Part shown: positions 10,987 through 58,018 of the stretch, piece by piece | How positions within the stretch are numbered: the stretch's first letter is position 1 | How the letters are laid out: each line of letters starts with the position of its first letter | Assembly: GCA_009829735.1 (NCBI GenBank) | Contig: CM020618.1 | Coordinates: forward strand, 31,100,894 to 31,164,893 | Length of the DNA stretch: 64,000 nt | DNA from: Pyropia yezoensis | Lineage: Eukaryota; Rhodophyta; Bangiophyceae; Bangiales; Bangiaceae | Direction: 5' to 3' | Notes under the pieces: model-generated | Seen by the model: only the letters and a program-made list of their open reading frames with translations | What the model was told of the DNA's origin: nothing | Databases searched by the model: none | Translations under genes and position numbers: made by a program

Positions 10987-11455
10987 TGTGGCAAAAACCT
11001 CTTCCACACGCGACACCCAAGTTGGGGCGGTGCACAAGGGCTGCCTCCCGTGTCGGGGGAACCGGAAGAAGTGCAAGTCGCACACACCCTATCCCTGTTG
11101 TGGGGCAATCCCCCCACTGACAGACAAGAAGATGGTGTGTGGTCCAACAGTTTCTTCGTCGGGACGGGGACGCAGGGCCAAGCCCCGCTGTCCCTCCCCT
11201 TATCCCCCCAGGGTCCCCTCAGAATCTCGCCACTCAGAATCTCCCACCCCAGCACCTGCCCACCGGGCCACACGAAAATTCAAGACGATAAATGCAGAAA
11301 ACCCTCAAATTCAAGTTAGATTTACTACTAAGCTAACTATCCCAAACTTAGGGAATATGGACCCAAACGCGGGGGGAGGAACGGGTCAGGCTCGTGGCCT
11401 GCCGCCCCTTGCATGGCACGTGTTGCCCCCCTACCTGGGGTTCAATACTACCACA
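10987..11455 (-). repeat. Family II LTR (5' LTR of E2)
   Basis: 469 bp, TGTGGCA at the left end and TACCACA at the right (one change from TGCCACA). It aligns end to end with 3430-3897. The next base rightward, 11456, is inside element A's gag. Confidence 0.85.
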
Positions 11456-11587
11456 GGGGAGTATTCCGCCAGAGGCCCGGCACCGCGTAGGCAGCAAGCT
11501 CCAGGAGGAGTACTGGCAGTCAAGGGGGCACCTCCTCTCCCGGACATGCCGGAAGATAGTACTCGGCCGAGTACGGGAAACGAGTAA
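11456..11587 (+). pseudogene. Element A gag C-terminal tail
   Basis: About 43 codons matching the end of gag in B and C (GYPARxPxP..PGGVLAVE...GNE-stop). Everything upstream was displaced by the E2 insertion. The slippery heptamer GGGAAAC at 11575-11581 and the stop TAA at 11585 are kept. Confidence 0.75.
11575..11581 (+). promoter_or_regulatory. Candidate -1 frameshift heptamer GGGAAAC, element A
   Basis: Gag frame ACG GGA AAC GAG TAA. A -1 slip reads GGG AAA CGA GTA and continues open into pol. Downstream, CGGGGT (near 11600) can pair with ACCCCG (near 11632) around a GGGGTAACCC hairpin, a possible stimulatory structure. Confidence 0.6.
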
Positions 11588-14500
11588 GAGGAAGGACCAC
11601 ACGGGGTCGCTGGGGTAACCCTAGCAAGCCACCCCGGACTGCCGCGGGGAAAGCCCCACGGAGAGCGCGGTTGAGCCGACGCCGCATCAACCCCCGGGTA
11701 CACCTTCTGGCCCCGACGACACGGCGCCAGGGGATTGATGACCAACCTCCAAGGTTGGGAGGAGAGGCCGGGAAGCCCCGTCACATGGAACCAGACAAGG
11801 GCCCTGTTCAGGATGCCCGAGCTGCACCGGATATCGGTGTAGGCCACGTACTGTTCACCTTGGAGAACTTCAAGGTATCAGCCACACTGGTGGTTGACCC
11901 CCAGTCGACCCGATCGTATTACCCTGTACTGGATACAGGGGCTGGACCTAACCTGATCCGGAAGGATACCCTCCCGAACAAGTGGCTCCCGCAAGTCAGA
12001 GTCACTCGGGGACCCACGATCAAGGATACGAATGGTCGTCTCGTTCGTACGACCGCAGCGATGTCGCTGCGGGTCACCATCGGGGAACTCACCACGAAAG
12101 TTGACTTCCTGGTGTGTGAGGCTCTATCTGTGCCCTGCATACCGGGGTGCACCTTCATCAACGTTCACGTTGATGCAATCCGGCCGGGCCGGAGGACCGT
12201 CGAGCTGCAAGAGGACGACGGGACGAAGAGAGAACATACAGCTATCGTCAGGGACTTGACGCTACAAGGGAGCCACGTTAACGGGGCTGAGGTATACGCA
12301 AGCGTAGAACCGAGGACACTCCGGCTGGCTAAGCGGACTCGCTTTGAGCCGTTATCGGAGACCGTCCTCCCGGTTAACTGTGACCTCCCAGGCATCTGCA
12401 GAATCCAGTTCAACCTACGAACCTACAAGCGCCATGGGTTGACCATAGCCAACGGTATCGTAGACCTCCCAGCGGGGAGGTCATCACTGCTCGTGATGGC
12501 GAACCATCGCCGTAAGGCAGTCACCCTTCCGAAAGGAACTATCCTCGGGATCGCTGAGCTCTACGAAGGAGACATCCTTACCCCTGACAAGGAAGGTCAA
12601 GTGGAACCAATTGAGGTACTGGCGGTCACCGAGACCACCGCGCTGCAGCAACCCGATGACGGGAAGCCTAACCCATCCACAGCTCCGGCGGACATTCCGC
12701 CAAAGGACCAAGAAGCTTTGAAGGCACAGGCCGAGGCTGACCTCGACCACCTTTCTCCTTCGGTAGCTGAAGGGGTACGACGGATGTTAAGAAAGCATGA
12801 CGTCATGTGGACCGCCGGGGCGCTGGGTACCATTGGGGCAACCCAACACCGTATAGACCTGGTACCAGGGGCACGACCAGCGCGGTCGCAACCGCATCGC
12901 GCGGGACCTATGCAACGAGAGATCGTTGATGGAGAAGTGAAGAGGATGAGCGAAGCTAAGGTGATCCGACCTTCGATGTCGGAGTGGGGCGCCCCAGTCG
13001 TTATTGTACCGAAGAAGGATCGAACCCCTCGGTTCTGCATCGATTATCGACGCCTCAACTTGGTTACCAATAAGGACTCCTACCCTTTACCAAGGATGGA
13101 TGAATGCATCGACTCCCTGGGGGAAGCTACGGTGTTTACCACCATCGAATGCAATGCCGGGTACTGGCAGATCCCAGTTGCGGAGGAGGATATCCCCAAG
13201 ACGGCGTTCGTCTGTCACAGTGGAGTGTACGAGTTCCTAAGGATGCCCTTCGGATTGTCCAACGCCCCCGCCACATTCCAGCGGGCCATCGACATTATAC
13301 TGTCGGGAGTGAAGTGGCGTAACTGCCTGGTGTACCTGGACGATGTCATCGTCTTCTCACGTAACATGGATGACCATGTGCAACATGTCGACGAGGTACT
13401 TACCCTCTTGCGGAACGCCGGGGTGACCCTGCGCCTCAAGAAGTGCGCCTTCTTTCAGCAGACTGTCGAGTATCTGGGTCACCAGATCACACCAGGTAAA
13501 CTGGGAGTGCTCGAAGCTAATACCCGGGCACTCCGGGATGCGCGATACCTAACCACCCAGACACAGCTGAAAAGCTTCCTGGGGATGTGCAACGTATACC
13601 GACATTTCGTCAAGTACTTTGCTCGTATAGCCAAACCGTTAACGGTTCTGACGAGCAGCGCCTTGCCAAAGGTACTCCAACCTCCCTCGCCCAGCGAGGG
13701 AGAGGCATTCGAGCTGCTCAAGCAAGCTCTGCTAGCCCCACCCGTGCTTGCGTTGCCGCATAGACGCGGGACCTTCGTCATCGACGTCGATGCCTGCTAT
13801 ACCCAAGTGGGATGCACCCTGTTACAGGGAGAGACAATCATCGGTACCGATAATGCTATCCCGGACCTACATCCGGTGGGGTACTTCAGCCGGACACTCA
13901 ACCCGGCTGAGCGTAACTATAGTGCCACCAAACGCGAATGCCTCGGAGTCATATTGGCAGTGCAACTGCTCCGGCCATACCTGGAAGGTTCCAGGTTCAT
14001 CGTGAGGTCCGACCACGAACCTTTACGATGGCTTCTCAACCTTGGTGACAAGGATTCCGACAGCCACGGTCGGCTAGCCCGGTGGAGGCTGAAGATGGCC
14101 GAGCACGACTACCGGACCATATATAAGGCCGGCTCTACGCATCATCTGGGAGACGCGCTGTCGCGACTCGATACACCGAGCGGGGATACCCGACAGGTGG
14201 ACGAGGACATCCCGGTTGTACCGGTTTGCATGGTGGGTAACGCCACCCACGGTATGGTCGACCATACCATGGCGCACCTTGCGTGCCCATTGACCCTCGC
14301 GGACTTCCGCGAGGCACAGGCCAATGACGATGACTGTAAACGCCATTGTGCTAACCTCCTGGCCGGCACGGCCGGCATCTTCTCCGAGAATGAGGACGGA
14401 CTCATATACCGGCGGGCACCCGCCGATGGTCGACATCAGGTCGTGGTTCCCGTGTCCTTACGACAAGCCGTCATGGAACGAAAACACGAGAACCCCACAG

Positions 14501-16091
14501 CCGGACACCCGGGGGGTTCGCGCATGTTCGCAGCAATGCGAAGGTTCTTCTACTGGCCAGCAATGGCCGTCGACGTAATCGACCACGTCCGGGGATGCCA
14601 CCCGTGTGCACGGAATCGTATGAGTCTTCATAGGCGGGCATCCGCTATGAATCTGTTCCCCCTGGATGGGCCCAACGAGCAAGTCGCTATCGACATACTC
14701 GGGCCGCTTCCGGTAACGGAAGAAGGGAACAGGTACATCCTGGTCATGTCGGACCGCTTTACTAAGCTGTCACGGGCAGTGGCAATCCCGAACGATACGG
14801 CCTACACAATCATGAACGCAGTGGTTGACCACTGGATCAGTGCTTACGGAGTAATGAAGCAACTACTTTCCGATAACGGAGCAAACCTTACGTCAGCATT
14901 CTGCACTAAGGTCCTGGGCATGTTCGGTATCGAGCCCCGTCGGGCATCCGACTACCACCCACAATCCAACGGGCAGGTGGAACGGTTCAACCGCACCGTC
15001 GTGAAGATGCTCCAATGCTATGTCGCGGAGCACACGAAGACGTGGGACAGGCTTCCGTGCGTCTCGACCCTGGCATACAATGCCATGTTCGGTATCGAAC
15101 CCCGTCCGGCATCCGACTACCACCCACAATCCAACGGGCAGGTGGAACGGTTCAACCGCACCGTCGTGAAGATGCTCCAATGCTATGTCGCGGAGCACAC
15201 GAAGACGTGGGACAGGCTTCCGTGCGTCTTGACCCTGGCATACAATGCCATGTTCGGTATCGAACCCGTCCGGCATCCGACTACCACCCACAATCCAACG
15301 GGCAGGTGGAACGGTTCAACCGCACCATCGTGAAGATGCTCCAATGCTATGTGGCGAAGCACACGAAGACGTGGGACAGGCTTCCGTCCGTCTTGACCCT
15401 GGCATACAATGCCAGGCTCCACCGGAGCACCAGCATTGCCCCACTGGAATGGGTCATGCCGATGGGCGTCGGTAACCTGACGCTGCCACCGGGCAGATGC
15501 ACTCGGTATGACATACCGAGGGGCCGACCGGCCGAACGGATTCACTTAGCTTGGTTAGCCAAGCTATCGTGGATGATACCAAAGCTCAAGGGTGCCCTTG
15601 ACCGTACACAACTTCGATACAAGAAGAACTTTGACGCCTGGCTACGGGTACGCAACGCTACCCTGGTAACAGGTGACTGGGTCTACATCAGACACCATAC
15701 GTTCCGAGGGAACAAGCTTATGCAACCGGTCAAGGGACCGTACCAGATCTTACACAGAGATGATCACTCTATCATCCTGCACTCCGATACGGAGATACAA
15801 CGCATCAATCTCAATGATGTGACACCTGCTCCGAAGCCGTAACAGCCTCAGCCGGTACCGGCTGGGTTGCTACATGAAGCTCTCACAACCCACCGGTCAG
15901 ATGACCCAGTGGGGCCGGATGGGATTCCATACCAAGTGGAGAGCGTGGTCGGACACACCGACCCGGACCTACCAGGACCCTGGTACGTCAAGGAGATATG
16001 GGTCGGATACGACTCACCCACCTGGGAACAGGCGACCAATATACCCCGCCAACTTCTCATGCCTTACATGAGGCGACGACGCCTACTGTAA
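11588..16091 (+). pseudogene. Element A pol: protease, RT, RNase H, integrase, chromodomain; broken integrase
   Basis: Open in the -1 frame relative to gag. Protease VLDTGAGPNLIRK near 11935; RT FCIDYRRLN near 13033 and catalytic YLDD near 13333; RNase H DVDACYTQVG near 13785 and LGDALSRLD; integrase zinc finger with CHPCARN; core DILGPLPVTEEGN, SDNG and HPQSNGQVERFN; C-terminal chromodomain (YVKEIWVGYDSPTWEQ). Defects: the 165-bp integrase segment starting at 14920 is present three times in tandem, the third copy lacks one C so the frame shifts, and a Glu codon near 15841 is TAA where B and C read GAA. Integrase is therefore dead. The start codon is not an ATG, which fits expression only as a Gag-Pol fusion. 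Confidence 0.9.
14920..15414 (+). repeat. 165-bp tandem triplication inside integrase
   Basis: Copies begin at 14920, 15085 and 15250, each starting ATGTTCGGTATCGA. 165 bp is 55 codons, so the first two joins are in frame and each repeats the last acidic residue of the catalytic triad (QVERF). The third copy has CCC where the others have CCCC after GAA. B and C have a single copy. Confidence 0.9.
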
Positions 16092-16538
16092 CAACCCAAC
16101 CGACACCGACTTTGGCTTTTGGGGAGTGAGGCTTATACCTACTAAGTAGGGTGTCACATGGATTCGGCAAAACTTAGGTTCACTAAGTTGGAGCGGACTT
16201 AGGCAGACTAAGTAAGCTACTGACTTTTACAAGTTTACTTGAAGATGAATAACTCCAGTAATTTCAAAGAGACTTGAGGCTTACACCAAGGTAAACCTTC
16301 TTCCATGGGGCCAGTGACGGACCAAGGAAGGTTGACCTTCATGAGTATTAACCAACCAGGATGGGTTGGGGGCGCGAGAAATAACCGAGGCAGGCCACTG
16401 CTAAGGCAGACGGGGTACTCCCCAAAGGCTAGCATTGGTATCATGCAAACGCCCCAGCGGGGGATGAGTTCATACTCACTACTACCCGGCTACCATAAGG
16501 TTTACGGGGTCCCTCTCCCTCACAAGCAATAGCACTTC
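16092..16538. other. Gap between the convergent 3' ends of pol and accessory gene (A)
   Basis: No coding signal. It holds palindromic 15-mers CTTAG-N5-CTAAG (near 16175 and 16199) that recur in B and C at the same place, and a sequence stretch from 16130 that is well conserved in the three copies. It may carry the polyadenylation or termination signals of the two facing transcripts. Confidence 0.5.
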
Positions 16539-18905
16539 TCAGAGGGTAGACCCACTGGCCGAGGGAGGCCACTCACGCGTAAACGCGTACACCTCCGTGC
16601 TCCACCGGTCGGCAATCTCGCGACGGTCAATCGCCCGAGTTACCTCGGTGCATAGCTGGACGAGGGTGCTGCGACCAGCCTCCACGTCCTCCAGAGCTGT
16701 CTGGAGGCGGTCCAGCACGCCACCGAAGCAACGCGCGGAACCATTCAGCGCAGCACCTCGGAGGATATCCCCCCAGCTAACAGAGAGACCCTCCCGCATC
16801 TCGCGGGCAATGAGGGCGTCAACGCCCTCATACCATAGACGGGGACCCCCGTCACGCATGACAGGGGCGGAAAGTGACACTGGCGCAGCCAGAGGAGCCA
16901 CAGGAGCCGACACGGCTACCACCGGAGCCGGAGGAGCCTGATACGAGGCCCGGTAGGACCCCACTGAAGGGGCTCCACCGTAAACCCGGCGGGGCTCCGC
17001 CCGACGACGGGACACCTCACGCTCCCCACCCGCAGAGTCCCACTCTCGGGGACGACGGCCAACCCCCACCGGTATCGGGTTACCGAACCACGGGGCGAGG
17101 ACCTGAAGAGGGTCATGGATAACCATGGGAATAACCAGGTCAGGAACAGCCTCGGTGGACGCCCTCCCACGGCAATTGGGCGCACCTGGCTGAGTACGCC
17201 GGATGCGCAACGAGTAACGAGGCAAGGGGGCAGCCCCAGCCTGCGGATCCCGGTACGGGGGAAGGGTCAACACCCCAGCCCAGTTCACGTCATCGTGAAC
17301 GGCCAGGAGGGCCTCGAACTCCCGGGCCAACCCGGTCTTGGCAGCGATCATGTCTACGCCCAGCTGCCCGATATGCCGACGGACACCCGTCGGAAGATGA
17401 AACAGCCGCCCCTGCCGACGGACGGACAGCAAGAACGAGGAAGCCTGACCGAGGGTAACCTCAAGGGTGAAGGTCCCCTGCAACGGGTGGACCGGCCGGG
17501 AGGCCAACACACTCCCGAAGTATCGGAGACAGGAGTCGGTGTCAAACCGGAAAGCAGAGGCGGGTTCCCACCCCTCCTGCCACAGAGGCGGGCGCACGGG
17601 AGTGTACACCGGCGCGCGACCGTTACCGGTCTGCAACGCACACGTTATATCGGTGCGGAACGCATCCGCCATGACACCATGGTTGCGTCGCCAGCTCGAC
17701 GCCGACTTCAACCCCGCCATGGGCGGGTACGGAGCCGTCAACGCCAGATGCGGGGATACCCCCGGGAAGTACTCAAAGCCGGGATACCGGCCTGTATCGC
17801 CCACCGTCTGCCCAAACTCCACAGGATCCACCGCAGACGCAACCCCCCGAGCACTAGCCGGGTAGTCAACCTCCCGCGGCAACGCGGGGGCAACCAAGTC
17901 GCATATTCCGAAGGCGGGGTCTAGGAAGACTTCACTCCGCCCCACCCGGGTGCGCCAGAGCTGCGCATGCCGGTCGTCCTGCTCAGTCAGGACCCAATGA
18001 TGTTCCACCCCGACCGCATTGGGCTGGTTGACCAGCCGCACCAACTCCCGCTCCCAACTCGGGTCCAACTTGACGCGCCGGGAGGACTCTCCACGGTGAC
18101 GCGGCTGGTGGAAGTCCACCCGCATCCGCCCAGCGGAGTCCATGGACTCCTGCACGGTGAGGCCTCGAACCCGAGCCACCAAGTCGGACATCGACATGGA
18201 GGGTTGACCCGCCACCAAGGCGACGCCGCCACCCAGCGGGGAAACCCGGGCGGGCCCAGGAAGAACCGGTGGCGCCGGGGGAAGCCCCACCGGCAGATGG
18301 GCCGGTGTCGTAGGCGCACGGGGCCGAGGAGGAAGAAGAAGGGCGGGAGCCCGCCCGGAGTAACTCCCGGAGTCCCCCGCCATCGGGGAAGACACGTCTT
18401 GACCACCTGTCGCCCGCGGCACCGCGGGCAGAGCGTCGCCGCCACCCGGGCCGGACGTAGACACAACGGGGACGGAGGAGGTAGACCCGTTACCCACCTC
18501 CGCGGACGCACCACCAACCGGGCGGGCACCCGCGCCGTCTTGAGCCGCCGTCCCGGCCGGGGTACCGCCACGACCGCCCGACACACCGGCTGCACCGTCT
18601 TGGGGTAGAGCCGCGCCGGAACCGACGACAGGAGCCATCCGGGCCGCCGGAGGAGCAGGGGTAGAGGCAGCCACACGCGGTTGACCGCCACCCGACGGAG
18701 CCGTCGTGCCGCTGCAAACGGACGACAACCCGCCCGGCGCGCCTTCCGTAGCCACACGGACGGTTACCCGATCGTCGTCGTCCGACAAGCTCACCAAAAA
18801 GCACTCGGCAGCGGTGGTGGAGACGGGAACGTCGTCCTGCAGCACCTCCACCTCCTCCTCGAGCAGGAGGTCGTCCTCGCCCCCGGGCACCTGGGGGTCC
18901 GACAT
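16539..18905 (-). CDS. Family I convergent accessory gene, intact in A (about 788 aa, unknown function)
   Basis: The only fully open copy of this gene. I choose the ATG at 18905 (MSDPQVPGGEDD) because it is kept in A, B and C, 112 nt after a TATA box; an open frame upstream to 19301 crosses that promoter and is probably not translated. Residues ~8-30 are acidic (EDDLLLEEEVEVLQDD); ~60-230 are Ala/Gly/Pro-rich and probably disordered; ~240-780 look globular, with conserved stretches such as VRLVNQPNAVGVEHHW, HPLQGTFTLEVTLGQ and WGDILRGAALNGSARCFGG. No zinc finger, membrane segment or known enzyme motif is visible. It lies on the strand opposite gag-pol, tail to tail with pol. Antisense extra genes are known in some plant Ty3/gypsy lineages, but I cannot link this protein to any. 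Possible roles: regulation, RNA binding or structural; unknown. Confidence 0.75.
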   Translation of the reverse strand: MSDPQVPGGEDDLLLEEEVEVLQDDVPVSTTAAECFLVSLSDDDDRVTVRVATEGAPGGLSSVCSGTTAPSGGGQPRVAASTPAPPAARMAPVVGSGAALPQDGAAGVSGGRGGTPAGTAAQDGAGARPVGGASAEVGNGSTSSVPVVSTSGPGGGDALPAVPRATGGQDVSSPMAGDSGSYSGRAPALLLPPRPRAPTTPAHLPVGLPPAPPVLPGPARVSPLGGGVALVAGQPSMSMSDLVARVRGLTVQESMDSAGRMRVDFHQPRHRGESSRRVKLDPSWERELVRLVNQPNAVGVEHHWVLTEQDDRHAQLWRTRVGRSEVFLDPAFGICDLVAPALPREVDYPASARGVASAVDPVEFGQTVGDTGRYPGFEYFPGVSPHLALTAPYPPMAGLKSASSWRRNHGVMADAFRTDITCALQTGNGRAPVYTPVRPPLWQEGWEPASAFRFDTDSCLRYFGSVLASRPVHPLQGTFTLEVTLGQASSFLLSVRRQGRLFHLPTGVRRHIGQLGVDMIAAKTGLAREFEALLAVHDDVNWAGVLTLPPYRDPQAGAAPLPRYSLRIRRTQPGAPNCRGRASTEAVPDLVIPMVIHDPLQVLAPWFGNPIPVGVGRRPREWDSAGGEREVSRRRAEPRRVYGGAPSVGSYRASYQAPPAPVVAVSAPVAPLAAPVSLSAPVMRDGGPRLWYEGVDALIAREMREGLSVSWGDILRGAALNGSARCFGGVLDRLQTALEDVEAGRSTLVQLCTEVTRAIDRREIADRWSTEVYAFTREWPPSASGSTL

Positions 18906-18993
18906 GGTGGAGCCGGGGTAGCAGGGGCGCCCCGTGCCAAAAAGCCGCAGCCGGCTCGACCCGGTGCAAGGAACGCTCGCGGACGAGACAGGG

Positions 18994-19017
18994 AAGCGCG
19001 GGCACCCGCGCTTATAA
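18994..19017 (-). promoter_or_regulatory. TATA box and overlapping palindrome of the A accessory gene
   Basis: Minus strand TTATAAGCGCGGG, TATA at 19017-19012, 112 nt before the ATG. The overlapping palindrome AAGCGCGGGTGCCCGCGCTT (19013-18994) is perfect in B and C and has one centre change here. Confidence 0.6.
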
Positions 19018-19479
19018 CCACACAGCTCAGCACAAGCAATGCGCCAGCGCGGGACGACCCGCGCCAGCCGAGCTACGAGGTCGTCCCACCCAGGCACCTG
19101 GATCGGGGCCACGCCCCCCCACACGGGGTAATCAAGGGGGGTCACCACCAACCGCCCCCACGCAACGCGGGCAGCCCCCGCCCCCCACTCAATCGTCCAC
19201 ACGAGAGGGGCCCCCCTCCCACCAGACGCCTGGTGGCGGATCCGCTTGCACCACCCCTCGGAAAGGGGGGTCGTGAACAAAAACCCGCATCGGGAATTCA
19301 ACGGTCCGGAAAACGGATCGTGTGTTTACCACACAAAGGGGGGCACCCCCCTCAGACAACCTCGAATAGGGGTGTCTGTCGCGACAGGGCGCAAAGCCCC
19401 ACCCGACTGGTAAACGGTCACGCGACCCACTTACATTCGGAAACCCGAATGCAACTCGACCCGAGGACGGGCCGAATCT
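19018..19479 (-). other. Hairpin-rich leader between A accessory promoter and polypurine tract
   Basis: No convincing coding sequence. It contains CCACCAGACGCCTGGTGG, a G-run/C-run hairpin, CTGTCGCGACAG and CATTCGGAAACCCGAATG, each a hairpin or palindrome also present in B and C. Confidence 0.5.
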
Positions 19480-19491
19480 AAGGGGGGGATA
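19480..19491 (+). other. Polypurine tract of A
   Basis: AAGGGGGGGATA immediately before the 3' LTR at 19492. Primes plus-strand synthesis in LTR elements. B and C have the same tract. Confidence 0.7.
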
Positions 19492-19588
19492 TGTAGCAAT
19501 ATGGATGACCGTATTGTGACCCTTATACAGGTGGACTACTTCTAACCCTTAACTTTCAATTTGGGAGTCCGTATTGGTCACGGTATCT

Positions 19589-20688
19589 TGTGGTATAAAA
19601 CTCGATCCTCTCAGACACGTGTCAATATCCCTCGGGGGAAAGGGACAGGTAACACAGAAAGGGGAACTACGAGAATGGTATGCCTGTTGCCTCACGTGCC
19701 TGCTCGCAGAGCAAACAGATACGCACGGTAGTGCACACGGGAAAGAGGAAAGCAAACGCGCAGTTGTCTTTTTCCTGAGGGCGCGGGCCAAGGGCGCCTC
19801 GCTGTCCCTCTTAATGTGCATCTGGGGGAGCCTCGGCACGTTGGCCAGGTAGCCCCCCCCCCCCATAACCCCGAGTGGCCCCGACCCCAGTCTAACCTCG
19901 TCAGGTCGGGGGCCACTATCACTACTAATTCTATTCCCACTCACTAATCTCACACTCAATTTCTCTCAAATCAAGTCCCTTACAAGTATGCAAAAACCCA
20001 TCAGAAATCCCTCTCTCACGTGTGGATAGCGTAGTCCACCGCATCCCAGTGCCGGGCACGGGCCACGGCCGCCAACCATCACCACACGGCGGGCATGTTC
20101 TGGCACCTGGTGCCCTCTGGTTGTAGTCCCGGGTCGGCGCCAAGTCGGGGCCAGGGATGCTACATGGCTCCCTCCCTAGTCCGGCACGTCCTCGGGCCGA
20201 ATCAGGTGCCACCGTGCACAGCTTCGAGCACGTCCGCACCGGTGCCAAGGTCGAGCGTCTTCACCCCAGTTACAATCACCTGCTCCGATTCTGTCCCCCC
20301 CCCCCTTCTCCTAAGTCCCCGGCTCTCTCGATCTGGAACTCCCCAGTTTCAGCAACGACACCTATTTCCTCGTCTTTTCCTACAGCCAGTTCCCGCCACG
20401 TGTATTTCGGCCCTGTTCGCACGTTGCATGATGCCACGTGTATTTCGGCCCTGTTCGCACGTGCGAGATCCCCTGCTGCTCCACCATTGTGGAATAACAA
20501 GAAAGTAGATATCGGAGAGTCAGAATCGAACCCGGGCCCTTGAGAAGTTAGCGGAATGGCGTGCTCAAACCACTAGGCAACCGGGTGAAATCCCTTACAT
20601 CTCGAGCCGGATTTGGGGTTTTGGCCCCATCTCATTACGAGTACCTACCTTTTAGGTAAGCCGATCGGTGATTATGTATTGTGCTACA
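19589..20688 (-). mobile_element. 1,100-bp insertion with TATCT target duplication (short non-coding LTR-type element)
   Basis: Bounded by TGTGGTA...TGCTACA and flanked by TATCT at 19584-19588 and 20689-20693; uninterrupted LTRs have a single TATCT here. The right end looks like a 201-bp 5' LTR (20488-20688) followed inward by the common primer-binding site (20470-20486), so the orientation is minus. I could not find the matching left LTR by eye. No gag or pol is present; the longest open frames look random. A 30-bp direct repeat sits at 20395-20424 and 20433-20462. It resembles a TRIM- or LARD-like non-autonomous element. Confidence 0.65.
20508..20583 (-). other. tRNA-like sequence with Pol III A and B boxes in the insertion's LTR
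   Basis: Minus strand TTGCCTAGTGG (A box, near 20580) and GGTTCGATTC (B box, near 20530) stand about 45 bases apart, as in tRNA genes. The acceptor, anticodon and T stems do not pair properly, so it is not a working tRNA. It may be a tRNA-derived promoter or a captured relic. Confidence 0.4.
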
Positions 20689-20958
20689 TATCTATAAGTT
20701 ACGTATGACCGGAGGGACTTGCATCTTGGGGTGGAGGGTAGTTAGTAGTGTCTCCGAGGGGTTATAACGAGGGGGCCGGCGGCGAATCCACCGCCGGCCA
20801 TGGTAGAACAACAAACCCCTCCCATTTGGGCTCCCATCTTGGTCCCGTGGCTTGCGCTCCAAGGACAGCAACCTTGGCCTCCCTGTGACGTTGGTGCCGA
20901 TCCCCCTTGGTGAGAGTTCCCTGAGAGTGGACGTGCAGCGGATACCTATTGTGCTACA

Positions 20959-38517: not shown

Positions 38518-38530
38518 TATCCCCCCCTTA

Positions 38531-38992
38531 GATTCGGCCCGTCCTCGGGTCGAGTTGCATTCGGGTTTCCGAATGTAAGTGGGTCGCGTGACCGTTTACC
38601 AGTCGGGTGGGGCTTTGCGCCCTGTCGCGACAGACACCCCATTTCGAGGTTGTCTGAGGGGGGTGCCCCCCGTTGCGTGGTACACACACGATCCGTTTTC
38701 CGGACCGTTAAATTCCCGATGCGGGTTTTTGTTCACGACCCCCCTTTCCGAGGGGTGGTGCAAGCGGATCCGCCACCAGGCGTCTGGTGGTAGGGGGGCC
38801 CCTCTCGTGTGGACGATTGAGTGGGGGGCGGGGGCTGCCCGCGTTGCGTGGGGGCGGTTGGGGGTGACCCCCCCTTGACTACCCCGTGTGGGGGGGCGTG
38901 GCCCCGATCCAGGTGCCTGGGTGGAGCGTCCTCGTCGCTCGGCTGGCGCGGGTCGTCCCGCGCTGCCGTATCGCTCGTGCTGAGCTGTGTGG
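38531..38992 (+). other. Hairpin-rich leader between B polypurine tract and accessory promoter
   Basis: Conserved palindromes: CATTCGGGTTTCCGAATG (38558), CTGTCGCGACAG (38622), GGGGGGTGCCCCCC (38658) and CCACCAGGCGTCTGGTGG (38773). Loops vary among A, B and C while stems are kept. Confidence 0.5.
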
Positions 38993-39104: not shown

Positions 39105-41442
39105 ATGTCGGACCCCCAGGTGCCCGGGGGCGAGGACGACCTCTTGCTTGAGGAGGAGGAGGTGATGCAGGACGACGTTCCCGTCTCCGCCACCGCTGCC
39201 GAGTGCTTCTTGGCGAGCTCGTCGGAGGACGAAGACCGGGCAACCGTCCGGGTGGCCCCGGAAAGCGCGCCGGGCGGGTTGTCGTCCGTGTGCAGCGGCA
39301 CGACGGCTCCGTCGGGTGGCGGTCAACCGCGTGTCGCGGCTGCCCCTACTTCTAATCCTATGGCGACCCAAATGGCTCCTGTCGCCGGTGCCGGCGCGGC
39401 TCTACCTCAAGACGGCGCAGCCGGTGTGTCGGACGGTCGTGGCGGCACCCCGGCCGGGGCGGCGGGTCAAGACGGTGCGGGTGCCCGACCGATTGGTGGT
39501 GTGTCTGTGGAGGCGGGTAACGGGTCTACCCCCTCCGTCCCCGTGGTGCCCACGTCGGACCCGGGTGGCGGCGATGCTCTGCCCGCGGTGCCGCGGGCGA
39601 CAGGTGGTCAAGACGTGTCTTCCCCGATGTCGGTGGACTCCGGGAGCTACTCCTGGCGGACGCCCGCCCTTCTCCTTCCTCCTTGTCCCCGTGTGCCTAC
39701 GGCACCGGCCCATCCGCCGGTGGGGCTTCCCCCGGCGCCCCCGATTCATTCGTGGGCCCGCCCGGGCTGCCCCGCTGGGTGGCGGTGTCGCCTTGGCGGC
39801 GGGTCAACCCGCCATGTCGATGCCCGACTTGGTGGCTCGGGTTCGAGTCCTAACTGTGCAGGAGTCCATGGACTCCGCTGGGCGGATGCGGGTGGACTTC
39901 CACCAGCCGCGTCACCGTGGGGGGTCCTCCCGGCGCGTCAAGTTGGACCCGAGTTGGGAGCGGGAGTTGGTGCGGCTGGTCAACCAGCCGAATGCGGTCG
40001 GGGTGGAACATCATTGGGTCCTGACTGAGCCGGACGACCGGCATGCGCAGCTCTGGCGCACCCGGGTGGGGCGGGGTGAAGTCTTCCTCGACCCCGCCTT
40101 TGGGATATGCGACTTGGTTGCCCCCGCGTTGCCGCGGGAGGTTGAATACCCGGCTAGTGCTCCGGGGGTTGCGTCGGCAGCGGCGCCTGTCGCGTTTGGG
40201 CAGACGGTGGGCGACACCGGTCGGTACCCCGACTTCGATTATTACCCGGGGGTTTCCCCGTATCTGTCGTTGACGGCTCCCTACCCGCCTATAGCGGGGT
40301 TGAAGTCGGCGTCGAGCTGGCGACGCAACCATGGTGTCATGGCGGATGCGTTCCGCACCGATATAACGTGTGCGTTGCAGACCGGTAACGGTCGCGCGCC
40401 GGTGTACACTCCCGTGCGCCCGCCTCTGTGGCAGGAGGGGTGGGCACCAGCCCCTGCTTTCCAGTTTGACACCGGCTCCTGCCTCCGATACTTCGGTAGT
40501 GTGCTGGCCTCCCGGCCGGTCCACCCGTTGCAGGGGACCTTCACCCTTGAGGTTACCCTCGGGCAGGCTTCCTCCTTCTTGCTGTCCGTCCGCCGGCAGG
40601 GGCGCCTGCTTCATCTTCCGACGGGTGCCCGTCGGCATATCGGGCAGCTGGGAGTAGACATGATAGGTGCCAAGACCGGGTTGGCCCGGGAGTTCGAGGC
40701 CCTGCTGGCCGTTCACGATGCCGTGAACTGGGCTGGGGTGTTGAATCTTCCCCCGTACCGGGACCCGCAGGCTGGGGCTGCCCCCTTGCCTCGTCACTCG
40801 TTGCGCATCCGGCGTACTCAGCCAGGTGAGCCCAATTGCCGTGGGTGGGCGTCCACCGAGGCTGTTCCTGACCTGGTTATTCCCATGGTTATCCATGACC
40901 CTCTTCAGGTCCTCGCCCCGTGGGTCGGTAACCGGATACCGGTGGCGGTTAGCCGTCGTTTCCGAAAGTGGGACTCTGCGGGTGGGGAGCGTGAGGTGTC
41001 CTGTCGTCGGGCGGAGCCCCGCCGGGTTTACGGTGGAGCCCCTTCAGTGGGGTCCTACCGGGCCTCGTATCAGGCTCCTCCGGCTCCGGTGGTAGCCGTG
41101 TCGGCTCCTGTGGCTCCTGTGGCTGCGCCAGTGTCACTTTCCGCCCCTGTCATGCGTGACGGGGGTCCCCGTCTATGGTATGAGGGCGTTGACGCCCTCA
41201 TTGCCCGCGAGATGCGGGAGGGTCTCTCTGTTAGCTGGGGGGATATCCTCCGAGGTGCTGCGCTGATTGGTTCCGCGCGTTGCTTCGGGGGCGTGCTGGA
41301 CCGCCTCCAGACAGCTCTGGAGGACGTGGAGGCTGGCCGCAGCACCCTTGTCGAGCTATGCACCGAGGTAACTCGGGCGATTGACCGTCGCGAGATTGCC
41401 GACCGGTGGAGCATGGAGGTGTACGCGTTTACGCGTGAGTGA
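39105..41442 (+). pseudogene. Family I convergent accessory gene, B copy with one frameshift
   Basis: ATG at 39105 (MSDPQVPGGEDD). Open to about 39750, where a single shift occurs at APPI; the other frame then runs to a TGA at 41440. About 90% like the intact A copy. The acidic start, Ala/Gly/Pro-rich linker and globular part (LVNQPNAVGVEHHW, VTLGQASSFLLSV, WGDILRGAALIGS) are all kept. It ends at TRE-stop, slightly earlier than A and C. Only one lesion in ~780 codons suggests recent inactivation. Confidence 0.75.
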
Positions 41443-41922
41443 CCTCCCTCGGGCAGCGGGTCTACCCACTGAGGAGTGCTATTGTTTGTGAGGGAGAGGG
41501 ACCCGGTGACCCTTATGATGGCCGGGTAGGAGTGAGTATAAACTCATCCCCCGCTGGGGCGTTTGCATGATCCCAATGCGAGCCTTTGGGGAGTACCCCG
41601 TCTGCCTTAGCCGTGGCCTGCCTCGGTTATTCCTCGCGCCCCCAACCCATCCTGGTTGGTTAATACTCATGAAGGTCAATCTTCCTTGGTCCGTCACTTG
41701 CCCCATGGATGAAGGTTTACATTGGTGTAGGCCTCAGGTTACTTTGAAATTATCGGAGTTAGTCATCTCCTTCAAGTAAACTTGTAAAAGTCAGTAGCTT
41801 ACTTAGTTTGCCTAAGTCCGCTCCAACTTAGTGAACCTAAGTCTTGCCGATTCTATGTGACACCCTACTTAGTAGGTATAAGCCTCACCCCCCAACCGCC
41901 GAAGTCGGTGTCGGTTGGGTTG
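41443..41922. other. Gap between convergent 3' ends in B
   Basis: Non-coding. Holds palindromes CTTAG-TTTGC-CTAAG (near 41802) and CTTAG-TGAAC-CTAAG (near 41826), as in A. Confidence 0.5.
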
Positions 41923-44900
41923 TTACAGTAGGCGTGGTCGCCTCATGTAAGGCATGAGGAGTTGGCGGGGTGTATTCGACGCCTGTTCCCAGGTGGGTGA
42001 GTCGTATCCGGCCCACATCACCTTGACGTACCAGGGTCCTGGTAGGTCCGGGTCGGTGTGTCCGACCACGCTCTCTAACTGGTATGGAATCCCATCCGGT
42101 CCCACCGGGTCATCCGACCGGTGGGTTGTGAGAGCTTCATGTAGCAACCCAGCCGGTACCGGCTGAGGCTGTTCCGGCTTCGGAGCAGCTGTCACATAAT
42201 TGAGATTGATTCGTTGTATCTCCGTATCAGAGTGCAGGATGATAGAGTGATCATCTCTGTGTAATATCTGGTACGGTCCCTTGACCGGTTGCATAAGCTT
42301 GTTCCCTCGGAACGAATGGTGTCTGATGGAGACCCAGTCACCTGTTACCAGGGTTGCGTTGCGTACCCGTAGCCGGGCGTCAAAGTTCTTCTTGTATCGA
42401 AGTTGTGTACGGTGAAGGGCACCCTTGAGCTTCGGTATCATCCACGATAGCTTGGCTAACCAAGCTAAGTGGATCCGTTCGGCCGGTCGGCCCTTCGGTA
42501 TGTCATACCGAGTGCATCTGCCCGGTGGCAGCGTCAGGTTACCGACGCCCATCGGCATGACCCATTCCAGTGGGGCAATGCTGGTACTCCGGTGGGGCCT
42601 GGCATTGTATGCCAGGGTGAGTACGGACAGAAGCCTGTCCCACGTCTTCGTGTGCTCCGCCACATAGCATTGGAGCATCTTCACGATGGTGCGGTTGAAC
42701 CGCTCCACCTGCCCGTTGGATTGTGGGTGGTAGTCGGATGCCCGACGGGGTTCGATACCGAACATGCCCAGGACCTTAGTGCGGAGTGCTGACGTAAGTT
42801 TTGCTCCGTTATCGGAGAGGAGATGCTTCTTTACTCCGTACGCACTGATCCAGTGGTCCACCACTGCGTTCATGATTGGGTAGGCCGTATCGTTCGGGAT
42901 TGCTACCGCACGTGACAGCTTAGTAAAGCGGTCCGACATGACCAGGATGTACCTGTTCCCTTCTTCCGCTACCGGGAGCGGCCCGAGTATGTCGACAGCG
43001 ACTTGCTCGTTGGGCCCATCCGGGGGGAACAGATTCATAGCGCATGCCCGCCTATGAAGACTCATACGATTCCGTGCACACGGGTGGCATCCCCGGACGT
43101 GGGCGACCACGTCGACGGCCATTGCTGGCCAGTAGAAGAACCTTCGCATTGCTGCGAACATGCGCGAACCCCCCGGGTGTCCGGCTGTGGGGTTCTCGTG
43201 TTTTCGTTCCATGACGGCTTGTCGTAAGGACACGGGAACCACGACCTGATGTCGACCATCGGCGGGTGCCCGCCGGTATATGAGTCCGTCCTCATTCTCG
43301 GAGAAGATGCCGGCCGTGCCGGCCAGGAGGTTAGCACGATGGCGTTTACAGTCATCGTCATTGGCCTGTGCCTCGCGGAAGTCCACGAGGGTCAATGGGC
43401 ATGCAAGGTGTGCCATGGTATGGTCAACAATACCTTGGGTGGCATTACCCACCATGCAAACCGGTACAACCGGGATGTCCTCGTCCACCGGTCGGGTATC
43501 CCCGCTCGGTGTATCGAGTCGCGACAGCGCGTCTCCCAGATGATGCGTAGAGCCGGCCTTATATATGGTCCGGTAGTCGTGCTCGGCCATCTTCAGCCTC
43601 CACCGGGCTAGCCGACCGTGGCTGTCGGAATCCTTGTCACCAAGGTTGAGAATCCATCGTAAAGGTTCGTAGTCGGACCTCACGATGAATCTGGAACCTT
43701 CCAGGTATGGCCGAAGCAGTTGCACTGCCCATATGACTCCGAGGCACTCGCGCTCGGTGGCACTATAGTTACGTTCAGCCGGGTTAAGTGTCCGGCTGAA
43801 GTACCCTACCGGATGTAGGTCCGGGATAGCATTATCGGTACCGATGATTGTCTCTCCCGGTAACAGGGTGCATCCCACTTGGGTATAGCAGGCATCGACG
43901 TCGATGACGAAGGTCCCGCGTCTATGCGGCAACGCAAGCACGGGTGGGGATAGTAGGGCTCGCTTCAGCGACTCGAATGCCTCCTCTTCGCTAGGCGAAG
44001 GGGGTTGGAGTACCTTGGGCAGGGTACTGCTCGTAAGAACCGTTAACGGCTTAGCTATCCGAGCGAAGTCCTTGACGAACCGTCGGTATACATTGCACAT
44101 TCCCAGGAAGCTATTGAGCTGCGTCTGGGTGTTAGGGAACCGGGCATCCCGGAGTGCCCGGGTATTGGCTTCGAGTACCCCTAGTTTACCAGGGGTTATC
44201 TGGTGGCCCAGATACTCGACCGTTTGTTGGAAGAAGGCGCACTTCTTCAGACGCAGGGTTACCCCGGCGTTCCTCAAGAGGGTGAGTACCTCGTCAACAT
44301 GTTGCACATGGTCATCCATGTTACGCGAGAAGACGATGACGTCATCGAGGTACACTAGGCAGTTACGCCACTTGACTCCCGACAGTATAATGTCGATGGC
44401 CCGCTGGAATGTGGCGGAGGCGTTGGACAATCCGAAGGGCATCCTTAGGAACTCGTACACTCCACTGTGACAGACGAACGCGGTCTTGGGGATATCCTCC
44501 TCCGCAACTGGGATCTGCCAGTACCCGGCATTGCAGTCGATAGTGGTGAACACTGTAGCTTCCCCCAGGGAGTCGATACACTCGTCCATCGTTGGTAAGG
44601 GGTATGAGTCTTTCTTGGTAACCAAGTTGAGGCGTCGATAATCGATGCAGAACCGAGGGGTTTGATCCTTCTTCGGTACGATGACGACTGGGGCGCCCCA
44701 CTCCGACATCGAAGGTCGGATCACCTTAGCTTCGCTCATCCTCTTCCCTTCTCCATCAACTATCTCTCTTTGCATAGGTCCCGCGCGATGCGGTTGCGAC
44801 CGCGCTGGTCGAGCACATGGTACCAGGTCTATACGGTGTTGGGTTGCCCCAATGGTACCCAGCGCTCCGCCGGTCCACATGACGTCATGCTTTCTTAACA

Positions 44901-46097
44901 TCCGTCGTACCCCTTCAGCTACCGAAGGGGGAAGGTTGTCGAGGTCAGCCTTGGCCAGTGCCTTCAAGGCTTCTTGGTCCTTTGCTGGAATGTCCGCCGG
45001 AGCTTTTGATGGGTTAGGCTTCCCTTCATCGGGTTGCTGCAGCTCGGTGGTCTCGGTGACCGCCAGCACCTCAAGTGGTTCCACTTGACCTTCCTTGTCA
45101 GGGGTAAGGATGTCTCTTACGTAGAGCTCGGCGATCTCGAGGATAGTCCCTTTCGGAAGGGTGACTGCCTCACGGCGATAGTTCGTCATCACGAGCAGTG
45201 ATATCCCCCCCGCTGGGAGGTCTACGATACCGTTGGCCATGGTCAACCCATGGCGCTCGTAGGTTCGTAGGTTGGACTGGACTCTGCAGATGCCTGCGAG
45301 GTCACAGTTAACCGGGAGGACGGTCTCCGATAACGGCTCAAAGTGAGTCCGCTTAGCCAGCCGGAGTGTCTTCGGTTCTACGCTTGCGTATACCTTAGCC
45401 ACGTTAACGTGGCTCCCTTGCAGCGTCAGGTCCCTGACGATAGCTGTCTGTCCTCTCTTCTTCCCGTCGGCCTCTTGCAGCTCGACGGTCCTCCGGCCCG
45501 GCCGGATCGCATCAACGTGAACGTTGATGAAGGTGCACCCCAGTATGCAGGGCACAGATAGAGTCTCACACACCAGGAAGTCAACTTCCGTAGTGAGCTC
45601 CCCGATGGTGACCCGCAGCGACATCGCTGCGGTCGTACGAATGAGACGACCATTGGCATCCTTGATCGTGGGTCCCCGAGCAACTCTGACTCGCGGGAGC
45701 CACTTGTCCGGGAGGGTTTCCTTCCGGATCAGGTTAGGTCCAGCCCCTGTATCCAGTACAGGGTAATACGATCGGGTCGACTGGGGGTCAACCCCCAGTG
45801 TGGCTGATACCTTGAAGTTCTCCAAGGTGAACAGTACGTGGCCTACACCGATATCCGGTGTAGCTCGGGTATCCTGACCAGGGCCCTTGTCTGGTTCCAT
45901 GTGACGGGGCTTCCCGTCCTCTTCTCCCAACCTTGGAGGTTGGTCATCAATCCCCTGGCGCCGTGTCGTCGGGGCCGGAAGGTGTACCCGGGGGTTGATG
46001 CGGCGTCGGCTCAACCGCGCTCTCCGTGGGGCTTTCCCCGCGGCATTCCGGGGTGGCTTGCTAGGGTTACCCCAGCGACCCCGTGTCGTCCTTTCTC
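41923..46097 (-). CDS. Element B pol, the intact copy (about 1,360 aa)
   Basis: A single open frame. No ATG lies at its start; it is reached by -1 frameshift from gag. Counting from 46014: protease D88-T-G; RT FCIDYRRLN near 445 and catalytic YLDD at 555-558; RNase H DVDACYTQVG near 700; integrase zinc finger ending CHPCARN near 980; core DILGPLPVAEEGN, D1068 of SDNG and the Glu of QSNGQVERFN; C-terminal chromodomain from about 1312 (WYVKVMWAGYDSPTWEQ). Enzymes for cDNA synthesis and integration, the chromodomain probably steering integration to chromatin. It could supply active enzymes only if gag, broken in B, were provided. Confidence 0.88.
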
Positions 46098-48002: not shown

Positions 48003-48015
48003 TATCCCCCCCTTA

Positions 48016-48475
48016 GATTCGGCCCGTCCTCGGGTCGAGTTGCATTCGGGTTTCCGAATGTAAGTGGGTCGCGTGACCGTTTACCAGTCGGGTGGGGCTT
48101 TGCGCCCCGTCGCGACAGACACCCCTTTTCGAGGTTGTCTGAGGGGGGTGCCCCCCTTTGTGTGGTACACACACGATCCGTTTTCCGGACCGTTAAATTC
48201 CCGATGCGGGTTCTGTTCACGACCCCCCTTTCCGAGGGGTGGTGCAAGCGGATCCGCCACCAGGTGTCTGGTGGTAGGGGAGCCCCTCTCGTGTTACCGA
48301 GTGAATGGGGGCGGCCGCTGCCCGCGTTGCGTGTGGGCGGTTGGGGGTGACCCCCCTTGCTTACCCCGTGTGGGGGGGGCGTGGCTCCGGTCCAGGTGCC
48401 TGGGTGGAGCGTCCTCGTCGCTCGGCTGGCGCGGGTCGTCCCGCGCTGCCGTATCGCTCGTGCTGAGCTGTGTGG
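48016..48475 (+). other. Hairpin-rich leader of the C accessory gene
   Basis: Same palindromes as in A and B, including CTGTCGCGACAG near 48108 and CCACCAGGTGTCTGGTGG near 48256. No coding evidence. Confidence 0.5.
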
Positions 48476-48587: not shown

Positions 48588-51013
48588 ATGTCGGACCCCC
48601 AGGTACCCGGGGGCGAGGACGACCTCCTGCCTGAAGAGGGGGAAGAGGTGATGGTGGACGACGTTCCCGTCTCCGCCACCGCCGCCGAGTGATTCCTAGC
48701 GAGCTCGTCGGAGGACGAGGACGACCGGGTGACCGTTCGTGTGGCCCCGGACGGCGCGCCGGGCGGGTTGTCGTCCGTGTGTAGCGGCACGACGGCTCCG
48801 TCGGGTGGCGGGCAACCGCGGGTAGCTGCTGCGTCTACCCCTACTCCTCCGGCGGCCCGAATGGCTCCTGTCGCCGGTGCCGGCGCGGCTCAACCTCAAG
48901 ACGGCGTTGCCGGCGTGTCGGGCGGTTATGGTGGCACCCCGACCGGGACGGCGGGTCAAGACGGCGCGGGTGCCCGCCCGGGTGGTTCATCCGCGGCTGC
49001 GGGTGACGGGTCTACCCCTGCTGCCCCCGAGGTGCCCCCGTCGGGCTCGGGTGGCGGCGTTGCTGTGCCCGCGGTGCCGCGGGCGTCTGGTGGTCAAGGT
49101 GGGTCTACACCGATGGCAGTGGACTCCGGTAGTTACTCCGGGCGGGCGCCCGCCCTTCTTCTTCCTCCTCGGCCGCGTGATCCTCCGGCACCGGTCCATC
49201 TGCCGGTGGGGCTTCCCCCGGCGCCCCCGATTCTTCCTGGTCCTGCCCGGGTTGCCCCGTTGGGTGGCGGCGTCGCCGTGGCGGCGGGTCAACCCGCCAT
49301 GTCGATGTCCGACTTGGTGGCTCGGGTTCGCGGCCTGACTGTGCAAGAGTCAATGGAGTCCGATGGGCGGATGCGGGTGGACTTCCACCTGCCCCATCCC
49401 CGTGGAGAGTCCTCCCGGCGTGTCAAGATGGACCCGAGTTGGGAGCGAGAGTTGGTGCGGCTGGTCAACCAGCCGAACGCGGTGCGGGTGGAACACCATT
49501 GGATCCTGAGTCAGCCGGACGACCGGCATGCGCAGCTCTGGCGCACCCGGGTGGGGCGGGGTGAAGTCTACCTCGACCCCGCCTTCGGGGTATGCGACCT
49601 GATTGCTCCCGCGTTGCCGCGGGAGGTTGACTACCCGGCTAGTGCACGGGGGATTGCGGCGGCGGCGGAGCCGGTTGCGTTTGGGCAGACGGTGGGCGAC
49701 ACCGGTCGGTACCCCGACTTCGATTATTACCCGGGGGTTTCCCCGTATCTGTCGTTGACGGCTCCCTACCCGCCTATAGCGGGGTTGAAGTCGGCGTCGA
49801 GCTACGACGCAACCATGGTGTCATGGCGGATGCGTTCCGCACCGATATAACGTGTGCGTTGCAGACCGGCAACGGTCGTGCGCCGGTATACACTCCCGTG
49901 CGCCCGCCTCTGTGGCAGGAGGGGTGGGAACCCGCCCCTGCTTTCCGGTTTGACACCGGCTCCTGTCTCCGATACTTCGGGAGTGTGTTGGCCTCCCGGC
50001 CGGTCCACCCGTTGCAGGGTACCTTCACCCCTGAGGTTACCCTCGGGCAGGCGTCCTCCTTCTTGCTGTCCGTCCGCCGGCAGGGGCGCCTGTTTCATCT
50101 TCCGACGGGTGTCCGTCGGCACATCGCGCAGTTGGGCGTGGACCTGATAGCTGCCAAGACCGGGTTGGCCCGGGAGTTCGAGGCCCTGCTGGCTGTTCAC
50201 GATGCCGTGAACTGGGCTGGGGTGTTGGCCCTTCCCCCGTACCGGGACCCGCAGGCTGGGGCTACCCCCTTGCCTCGTCACTCGTTGCGTATCCGGCGTA
50301 CTCAGCCGGGTGAGCCTAGTTGCCATGGGTGGGCGTCCACCGAGGCCGTTCCTGACCTGGTTATTCCCATGGTTATCCATGACCCTCTTCAGGTCCTTGC
50401 CCCGTGGTTCGGTAACCCGATACCCGCGGCGGTTGGCCGTCGTCCCCGAGAGTGGGGCTCTGCGGGTGGGGAGCGTGAGGTTTCCCGTCGTCGGGCGGAG
50501 CCCCGCCGGGGTTACGGTGGAGCCCCTTCAGTGGGGTCCTACCGGGCCTCATATCAGGCGCCACCGGCTCCGGTGGTGGCCGTGTCGGCTCCTCTGGCTC
50601 CTCTGGCTGCGCCAGTGTCCGCTCCCGCCCCTGTCATACAAGACGGGGGTCCCCGTCTCTGGTATGAGGGCGTTGACGCCCTTGTTGCCCGCGAGATGCG
50701 GGAGGGTCACTCTGTTAGCTGGGGGGATATCCCCCCAGGTGCTGCGCTAGTTGCGTCAGCGCGTTGCTTCGGTGGCGTGCTGGACCGCCTCCAGAAAGCT
50801 CTGGAGGACTTGGAGGCTGGCCGCAGCACCCTCGTCCAGCTATGCACCGAGGTAACTCGGGTGATTGACCGTCGTGAGATTGCCGACCGGTGGAGCACGG
50901 AGGTATACGCGCTTACGCGTGAGTGGCCTCCCTCGGGCAGTGGGTCTACCCACTGCGGAGTGTTATTGTTTGTACGGGAGAGGGACCCGGTGGCCCTTAT
51001 GGTAGCCGGGTAG
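48588..51013 (+). pseudogene. Family I convergent accessory gene, C copy (nonsense and frameshift)
   Basis: ATG at 48588 (MSDPQVPGGEDD). Codon 35 is TGA at 48690 where A and B have TGC. It is then open to ~49803, where one base is missing (AGCTACGAC for AGCTGGCGAC), and open again to 51013. The C-terminus is ~25 residues longer than in A because its stop is lost. The globular region aligns with A throughout. Not translatable as one protein. Confidence 0.75.
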
Positions 51014-57793: not shown

Positions 57794-58018
57794 AGTCACA
57801 ATCAGTCAACCGACGTAACAATCACCACGAATAATAGAGCGAGGGGGTAGATTGGGGGGAGTAACAGTAGATCACAGTCAAAGGTAAAAACTCAACACAA
57901 TCGATCAGGTCGCAACACCACGAGTACAAGAAAAGGACCGGATCCCTATCCGTGTGCCAGGGCCGAAGACGGCGTCACCACAAGGGTGACGGAAACCCGT
58001 CCCCTGCTGCTCCACCAA
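57794..58018 (-). other. 5' leader of element C with primer-binding site
   Basis: Leader from LTR to gag ATG. The primer-binding site TGGTGGAGCAGCAGGGG is at 58017-58001, one base inside the LTR. Only about one base in 225 differs from the leaders in the 1,230-bp array. Confidence 0.8.

What the first reader, a model, noticed from the sequence alone, without database searches (positions are those of the whole stretch)
16539..19017. A large gene of unknown function runs antisense to gag-pol in family I, with its own promoter
Seen: A, B and C each carry a ~780-codon gene between pol and the 3' LTR on the opposite strand, open in A and with only one or two lesions in B and C. In all three a TATA box stands exactly 112 nt before the same ATG. 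Known: antisense extra genes occur in some plant Ty3/gypsy lineages. Inference: this is a real second transcription unit whose product, acidic start plus a ~500-residue globular part, matches nothing I know. It could regulate the element, since its transcript is also antisense to the 3' LTR leader side.
Basis: partly seen in the sequence, partly recalled or inferred. Interest (0 to 1): 0.78.

Follow-up and report, generated by a model that had tools for sequence, protein, structure and literature searches.

The report
Antisense gene in seaweed jumping genes
A family of virus-like jumping genes in the edible red seaweed nori carries an extra, backwards-facing gene for a protein of unknown type that natural selection keeps working, the same arrangement already known from some plant and fungal jumping genes but with no detectable kinship between the proteins.

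Summary
Window 16539-18905 (minus strand) is a 788-codon ORF between pol and the 3' LTR of a Ty3/gypsy element of the red alga Pyropia yezoensis; B and C carry it, each with one frameshift and one premature stop. It is protein-coding: 23 open copies give dN/dS 0.37 (dN<dS in 253 of 253 pairs) and context-corrected N/S 0.42; of the five wrong frames only the mirror frame is also low. A young subfamily keeps it (50 of 55 scored copies without stops, all at least 99% identical). The only named relatives found are P. vietnamensis 'hypothetical proteins'. No Pfam, PHROG or credible solved-structure match; both AlphaFold models failed. The promoter claim is weak: TATAA precedes the ATG by 111 nt in A, B and C, but genome-wide the motif reads TCATAAG at 388 places and TTATAAG at 236, and is no better conserved than its surroundings. 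A transcript would run away from the 3' LTR. Position and orientation match known antisense extra ORFs (Grande, RIRE2, Retand, Boty). Verdict: a real, selected accessory gene; a new protein family of a known kind, most likely a regulator (inference).

The parts
16539..18905 (-). antisense accessory gene (aORF) of copy A, 788 aa: acidic N-terminus 1-60, P/G/A/S-rich linker 61-240, conserved part about 260-600, basic/low-complexity 600-700, predicted helices about 715-777
39105..41472 (+). same gene in copy B, broken (one frameshift, one premature stop)
48588..50955 (+). same gene in copy C, broken (one frameshift, one premature stop)
19012..19016 (-). TATAA beginning 111 nt before the ATG of A; TCATAAG at most matched places in the genome
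18906..19491 (-). non-coding leader between the ATG and the 3' LTR; its LTR-proximal half (19205-19485) is the more conserved half and strongly structured
19492..20958 (+). 3' LTR of A (begins TGTAGCA), interrupted by about 1.1 kb at 19589-20688; purine run AAGGGGGGG just before it
11453..15842 (+). pol part of A (RT, RNase H, integrase), convergent with the aORF, with a roughly 165-nt tandem duplication; no gag or 5' LTR found upstream in the window
41923..46014 (-). pol of B, open, best solved relative Ty3-G Gag-Pol; convergent with B's antisense gene

Best explanation
The ORF is a genuine protein-coding accessory gene of a Ty3/gypsy LTR retrotransposon family of bangialean red algae, convergent with gag-pol. 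Shown: a conserved reading frame, purifying selection, linkage to LTR and pol in independent insertions, persistence in a young subfamily and in another species. Inferred: it is expressed from the leader next to the 3' LTR, and its product is a trans-acting regulator of the element, with an acidic DDLLxEEE-type N-terminus that looks like an activation or interaction tail, a flexible linker and a conserved part that contacts nucleic acid or a protein, as has been proposed for GENE23 of Grande and the Retand proteins.
For: Selection: 23 open copies, dN 0.049, dS 0.132, w 0.37, 253 of 253 pairs dN<dS; four of the five wrong frames give 1.21-1.38. Context-corrected N/S 0.42. Shared changes are more constrained than singletons (pN/pS 0.335 versus 0.60), as expected if selection acts on replicating copies. 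Residues 421-520: w 0.21 within the set and 0.08 against the young subfamily. pol of A versus B, first 1138 codons: 0.28. Linkage: at least 340 of 363 nt of LTR upstream in 49 of 52 held copies, 48 outer flanks with no similar pair; 7 pol-aORF pairs 485-509 nt apart in two capped lists of 34 and 55 hits. Young subfamily: 50 of 55 scored copies without stops. Four P. vietnamensis proteins keep EDDLLMEEE near their start (P0007, P0011, P0012, P0013). Regulatory reading: net charge -14 in residues 1-60, no clear membrane segment, and reviewed parallels.
Against: No transcript or protein evidence. No recognised domain; AlphaFold mean pLDDT 33.7 and 28.1, so nothing structural supports a nucleic-acid-binding or activator role. 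The leader differs less among copies (0.060) than synonymous sites do (0.132), so dS is not a clean neutral yardstick. Copies came from a capped list ranked by protein score, which favours low dN. The mirror frame on the other strand also gives 0.46-0.49, though no copy is stop-free in it. The acidic start is tight within the set (residues 1-60, 0.16) but not against the young subfamily (0.43). The TATA is not fixed.
Confidence: 0.55

Rival explanations
1. The product is a structural or assembly factor (an RNA chaperone, a particle component, or a nuclear import adaptor) rather than a regulator.
For: Conserved part with many invariant Arg, Trp, Phe and Gly positions, basic stretches at 617-640, retention in many copies.
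Against: No gag, zinc-knuckle or capsid match. A particle protein made from a separate antisense message would be unusual (general knowledge, no call).
Confidence: 0.25
2. The antisense transcript itself is the active part (dsRNA, silencing or interference with gag-pol) and the protein matters little.
For: Convergent overlap with the genomic RNA; the review PMC7264820 names dsRNA as a possibility for such ORFs (passages); strong predicted structure on both strands of the leader.
Against: Codon-level constraint in this frame and, weaker, its mirror only; frame kept in 50 of 55 scored young copies; protein conserved between species. An added RNA role is not excluded.
Confidence: 0.08
3. The ORF is a by-product: GC-rich sequence or constraint on the other strand keeps it open.
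For: 67.8% GC; many overlapping ORFs in the region; low w in the mirror frame.
Against: 0 of 1000 shuffles reach 788 codons; none of the three sense frames is stop-free across the compared codons in any of 23 copies; P. vietnamensis proteins align at 41-51% identity.
Confidence: 0.03
4. An envelope-like gene in reverse.
For: Position after pol.
Against: Opposite strand to gag-pol; the most hydrophobic 19-residue window averages only 1.69 and starts at residue 662 in an Ala/Pro/Val-rich stretch.
Confidence: 0.02
5. A captured host gene whose parent is still in the host or a relative.
For: No family match, so a host origin cannot be excluded.
Against: 49 of 52 held copies sit beside the LTR; the protein searches gave no relative named as a host gene, but they scored at most about 8000 candidates each and need shared 5-residue words.
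Confidence: 0.07

Closest known systems
Grande (maize) gene23 and the RIRE2/Gran3 relatives, Ty3/gypsy
   Same: [quoted passage not shown] for gene23 a promoter upstream of the gene, transcription antisense to gag-pol and a nuclear product (review PMC7264820: passages; one section).
   Different: Host is a red alga; no promoter or localisation shown here; the proteins were not compared directly, and this one matches no Pfam family.
Retand lineage with TRP28 (PF04195) antisense ORFs
   Same: Same position and orientation, kept across copies (PMC11963269, passages).
   Different: No PF04195 or any other Pfam match here at E<=1; Retand is reported from eudicots and Liliopsida only.
REM1 of Chlamydomonas, Ty3/gypsy
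   Same: Algal Ty3/gypsy element with a coding part in reverse frame (PMC2774666, passages; the original paper is not held).
   Different: REM1's reversed part keeps a GPY/F module and a chromodomain; no chromodomain match here.
Boty of Botrytis and Sclerotinia
   Same: Named in the review as a non-plant element with an antisense ORF between pol and 3' LTR.
   Different: Proteins not compared.
HBZ of HTLV-1
   Same: Antisense gene of a retroelement with a nuclear product (mentioned in PMC11963269).
   Different: No sequence comparison made; the HTLV antisense promoter lies inside the 3' LTR (PMC7264820), here the ATG is 587 nt away from the LTR.

Membership tests
Ty3/gypsy LTR retrotransposon (carrier) | pol order RT-RNase H-integrase, closest solved relative Ty3 | tested here: met
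   (Ty3-G Gag-Pol, E 1.3e-106)
Ty3/gypsy LTR retrotransposon (carrier) | LTRs flanking the internal region and a purine tract before the 3' LTR | tested here: met
   B and C: 363-364-nt LTRs beginning TGTAGCA and ending TGCTACA, G-rich purine run before the 3' LTR
antisense aORF-3R (Grande, Retand, RIRE2, Boty kind) | ORF between pol and 3' LTR, antisense to gag-pol | tested here: met
antisense aORF-3R (Grande, Retand, RIRE2, Boty kind) | present in most copies of the family, conserved like other element proteins | tested here: inconclusive
   Conservation near that of pol (0.37 versus 0.28). Presence: of 9 listed pol hits on C1 below 26.7 Mb, 8 have the leader motif about 3.0 kb away on the other strand (compared by eye), but all lists are capped and ranked.
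antisense aORF-3R (Grande, Retand, RIRE2, Boty kind) | own promoter and antisense transcript (shown for gene23) | not testable with these tools
   no RNA data; the TATA is not fixed
Retand lineage | TRP28 domain PF04195 in the antisense ORF | tested here: not met
   no Pfam family in the aORF proteins tested
REM1-like | reversed ORF with GPY/F and chromodomain | tested here: not met
   no chromodomain in the aORF
envelope-like gene | sense orientation and a membrane segment | tested here: not met

The most novel reading that the evidence does not exclude
Red-algal Ty3/gypsy elements independently acquired an antisense regulatory protein, an HBZ- or Tat-like trans-acting factor with an acidic interaction tail, that acts on the conserved, highly structured 280-nt leader lying between its own start and the 3' LTR, so that one short module controls both strands.
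Probability: 0.15. Interest if true: 0.65.

Novelty: new member of a known kind. Interest (0 to 1): 0.42.

Why it matters
The antisense extra genes I found in print are from flowering-plant and fungal elements. A selected one in a red alga, with no detected kinship to those, kept in near-identical young copies and with its leader motif at 624 places in the genome, suggests that this gene position has been filled by unrelated proteins more than once. It also gives a 107-Mb genome in which its transcription and role can be tested. The protein family is unannotated: its named members are 'hypothetical proteins' of P. vietnamensis.

Tried and rejected
Promoter by TATA: rejected as proof. Domain identity: Pfam, PHROGs and the PDB sequence search gave nothing credible (two PDB hits at E 0.13 and 0.14 not taken). 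Structure: two AlphaFold runs, mean pLDDT 33.7 and 28.1. In the first, block means reached 60-87 only at about residues 715-774 (helices) and 50-64 at 235-264; in the second nothing reached 70. No fold search was run on such models. Covariation in the structured leader: 0 of 81 pairs changed on both sides, the copies are too alike. Rfam: no match in the window.

Literature, seen as listings unless said otherwise: 'Pyropia' with 'LTR retrotransposon' and 'antisense', 0 papers; red algae/gypsy/antisense/retrotransposon/ORF, 4 papers, one of them looked at in passages and not reporting this; searches listed no paper whose title or shown abstract reports it. The library holds open-licence papers only, so this is no proof that it is unpublished.

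Failed computations: one search stopped with an error after its first result and was redone; one search used a wrong start for L051, its numbers were discarded and redone; one search did not serve its purpose.

Full report
What is there. The window lies in a 107.5-Mb genome whose three large contigs (43.6, 34.3 and 29.4 Mb) match the three scaffolds reported for Pyropia yezoensis (PMC7423979: passages; genome assembly section: 43.6, 34.3, 29.4 Mbp; 48.0% repeats, LTR elements predominant). On the minus strand an ORF of 788 codons runs from 18905 to 16539. It lies between pol and the 3' LTR of a Ty3/gypsy element: pol carries RT, RNase H and integrase, and the best solved relative of B's pol is Ty3-G Gag-Pol. 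In 1000 dinucleotide shuffles the longest stop-free run was 623 codons.

The three copies. A's gene is open, but A is not a whole element in this window: nothing left of 11453 matches the gag side of B or C at the thresholds used, and its LTR is interrupted by about 1.1 kb. B and C stand head to tail and share an LTR; their antisense genes each have one frameshift and one premature stop in A's register. A is also not typical: the other 56 listed copies are 86-91% identical to its protein.

Is it a gene? One search lists 57 full-length matches (a capped, score-ranked list), 29 of 57 with no internal stop. Of 52 held sequences (50 loci, one of which is A, plus B and C), 49 have at least 340 of 363 nt of the LTR upstream; A itself (interrupted LTR), L004 and L005 do not. 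None of the 48 outer flanks that could be compared resemble each other, so these are independent insertions. Among 23 open copies dN is 0.049 and dS 0.132, w 0.37, dN<dS in 253 of 253 pairs. Reading the same columns in the five other frames gives 1.21-1.38, except the mirror frame on the opposite strand (0.46), whose third positions coincide with those of the gene and which is stop-free in none of the 23 copies. Correcting for trinucleotide context gives 0.42, with the mirror frame at 0.49 and the other four at 1.27-1.94. Changes shared by several copies are more constrained than singletons (0.335 versus 0.60). Residues 1-60 (0.16) and 421-520 (0.21) are tightest; the linker 61-240 is loose (0.65). 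The first 1138 codons of pol, A against B, give 0.28.

Against a simple reading: the leader upstream of the ATG differs by only 0.060 per site among the same copies, less than dS, while an LTR piece differs by 0.187. Either the leader is constrained too, which its structure suggests, or dS is inflated by mutable sites; the context correction meets the second point only in part. The copies were also chosen by protein score, which favours low dN.

Young copies and relatives. The 34 listed pol hits of B (32 of 34 without internal stops) are, apart from B itself, 94% identical to B with nearly equal scores. One was followed downstream (L051): its antisense gene is open, 815 aa, 75% identical to A over the aligned length. 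Against it the 23 copies give w 0.39 overall, 0.08 in residues 421-520, but 0.43 in residues 1-60 and 0.61 in 641-700. All 55 scored copies of that version are at least 99% identical and 50 of 55 have no stop; seven pol-aORF pairs in the two capped lists lie 485-509 nt apart. Outside this genome the named relatives are ten P. vietnamensis 'hypothetical proteins' (P0003-P0007, P0009-P0013; 41-51% identity to A for the first three found); three more come from unnamed contigs (P0001, P0002, P0008). These searches scored only about 8000 candidates each. Four P. vietnamensis proteins keep EDDLLMEEE near the start (P0007, P0011-P0013); L051 keeps the weaker form EEEDLLIGEE.

The promoter claim. TATAA begins 111 nt before the ATG in A, B and C and lies at 105-125 nt in 43 of 52 held copies, but it is not better conserved than its surroundings: 46% of all 7-nt windows upstream are at least as conserved. 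Genome-wide, the exact surrounding 18-mer occurs at 236 places with TTATAAG and at 388 with TCATAAG; the sampled young copy has the latter. A promoter somewhere in the leader is likely on general grounds, but this TATA is not its proof. The transcript would leave the LTR behind and run towards pol, so it would be antisense to the 3' internal part of the genomic RNA, not to the 3' LTR.

An unexpected neighbour. The 281 bases next to the LTR (19205-19485) have full-length matches in 46 of 51 held loci and in B and C (L004, L005, L033, L037 and L040 have none); apart from A itself they are 94.7-98.6% identical, 95.7% in L051. They fold far better than shuffles (z -6.2 sense, -5.7 antisense; -5.3, -5.7 and -5.4 in A, B and C, sense, 40 shuffles each). 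In a coarse scan of 27 windows this stretch scored -4.6 and the window 15845-16124 scored -5.5, so it is not unique. Covariation cannot be shown, the copies vary too little (0 of 81 pairs). It may be a signal of the genomic RNA, a regulatory region for the antisense gene, or both.

What it does. Nothing identifies the protein: no Pfam or PHROG family, no credible solved relative, failed models. The layout, an acidic tail, a flexible linker, a conserved part and a helical end, and the parallels reviewed in PMC7264820 and PMC11963269 make a trans-acting regulator the best guess; this step is inference. Selection, linkage and frame conservation are shown.

Known kind. [quoted passage not shown] This gene fits the positional class but has no TRP28 or chromodomain match. 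It is a new member, with a protein family unlike those in the libraries searched, in a lineage for which the listings of my searches show no report.

Noticed in passing
19205-19485 (and 38524-38804, 48009-48288): Strongly structured, highly conserved non-coding stretch beside the 3' LTR; z -6.2 and -5.7 on the two strands of A, about -5.3 to -5.7 (sense) in A, B and C.
   Followed up: partly
15845-16124: A second strongly structured window at the end of pol and start of the pol-aORF gap of A (z -5.5).
   Followed up: no
57153-64000: Tandem array of 1230-nt units, each one LTR (about 364 nt) plus about 866 nt of the start of the internal region; units after the first nearly identical, the array runs to the window end. 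Real amplification or an assembly effect.
   Followed up: partly
38155-58381: B and C are head to tail and share one LTR; B lacks about 866 nt after its 5' LTR that C has.
   Followed up: partly
19589-20688: About 1.1 kb inserted in the 3' LTR of A; the LTR halves overlap by about 5 nt, as from a target-site duplication.
   Followed up: no
14919-15414: Tandem duplication of about 165 nt in pol of A.
   Followed up: no
G000 C3:17222908, C3:26821943, C3:22129878, C1:29434013: Four other copies match B's antisense gene end to end in one frame despite B's frameshift (73-81% identity), which suggests that they share the shift and that a lesioned lineage multiplied, perhaps helped in trans. Their sequences were not inspected.
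   Followed up: no
L022: Antisense ORF of 952 codons with the start motif twice, 162 residues apart.
   Followed up: no
P0013 (P. vietnamensis): Predicted protein joins the aORF N-terminus to a stretch that looks gag-like by eye; perhaps a nested insertion or gene-model error.
   Followed up: no
1744-2739 and 4944-6164: Other elements in the window with weak chromodomain matches, the second behind an integrase core; B's pol shows none.
   Followed up: no
26041-27651: Long overlapping ORFs with internal repeats about 67% alike; no convincing family.
   Followed up: no
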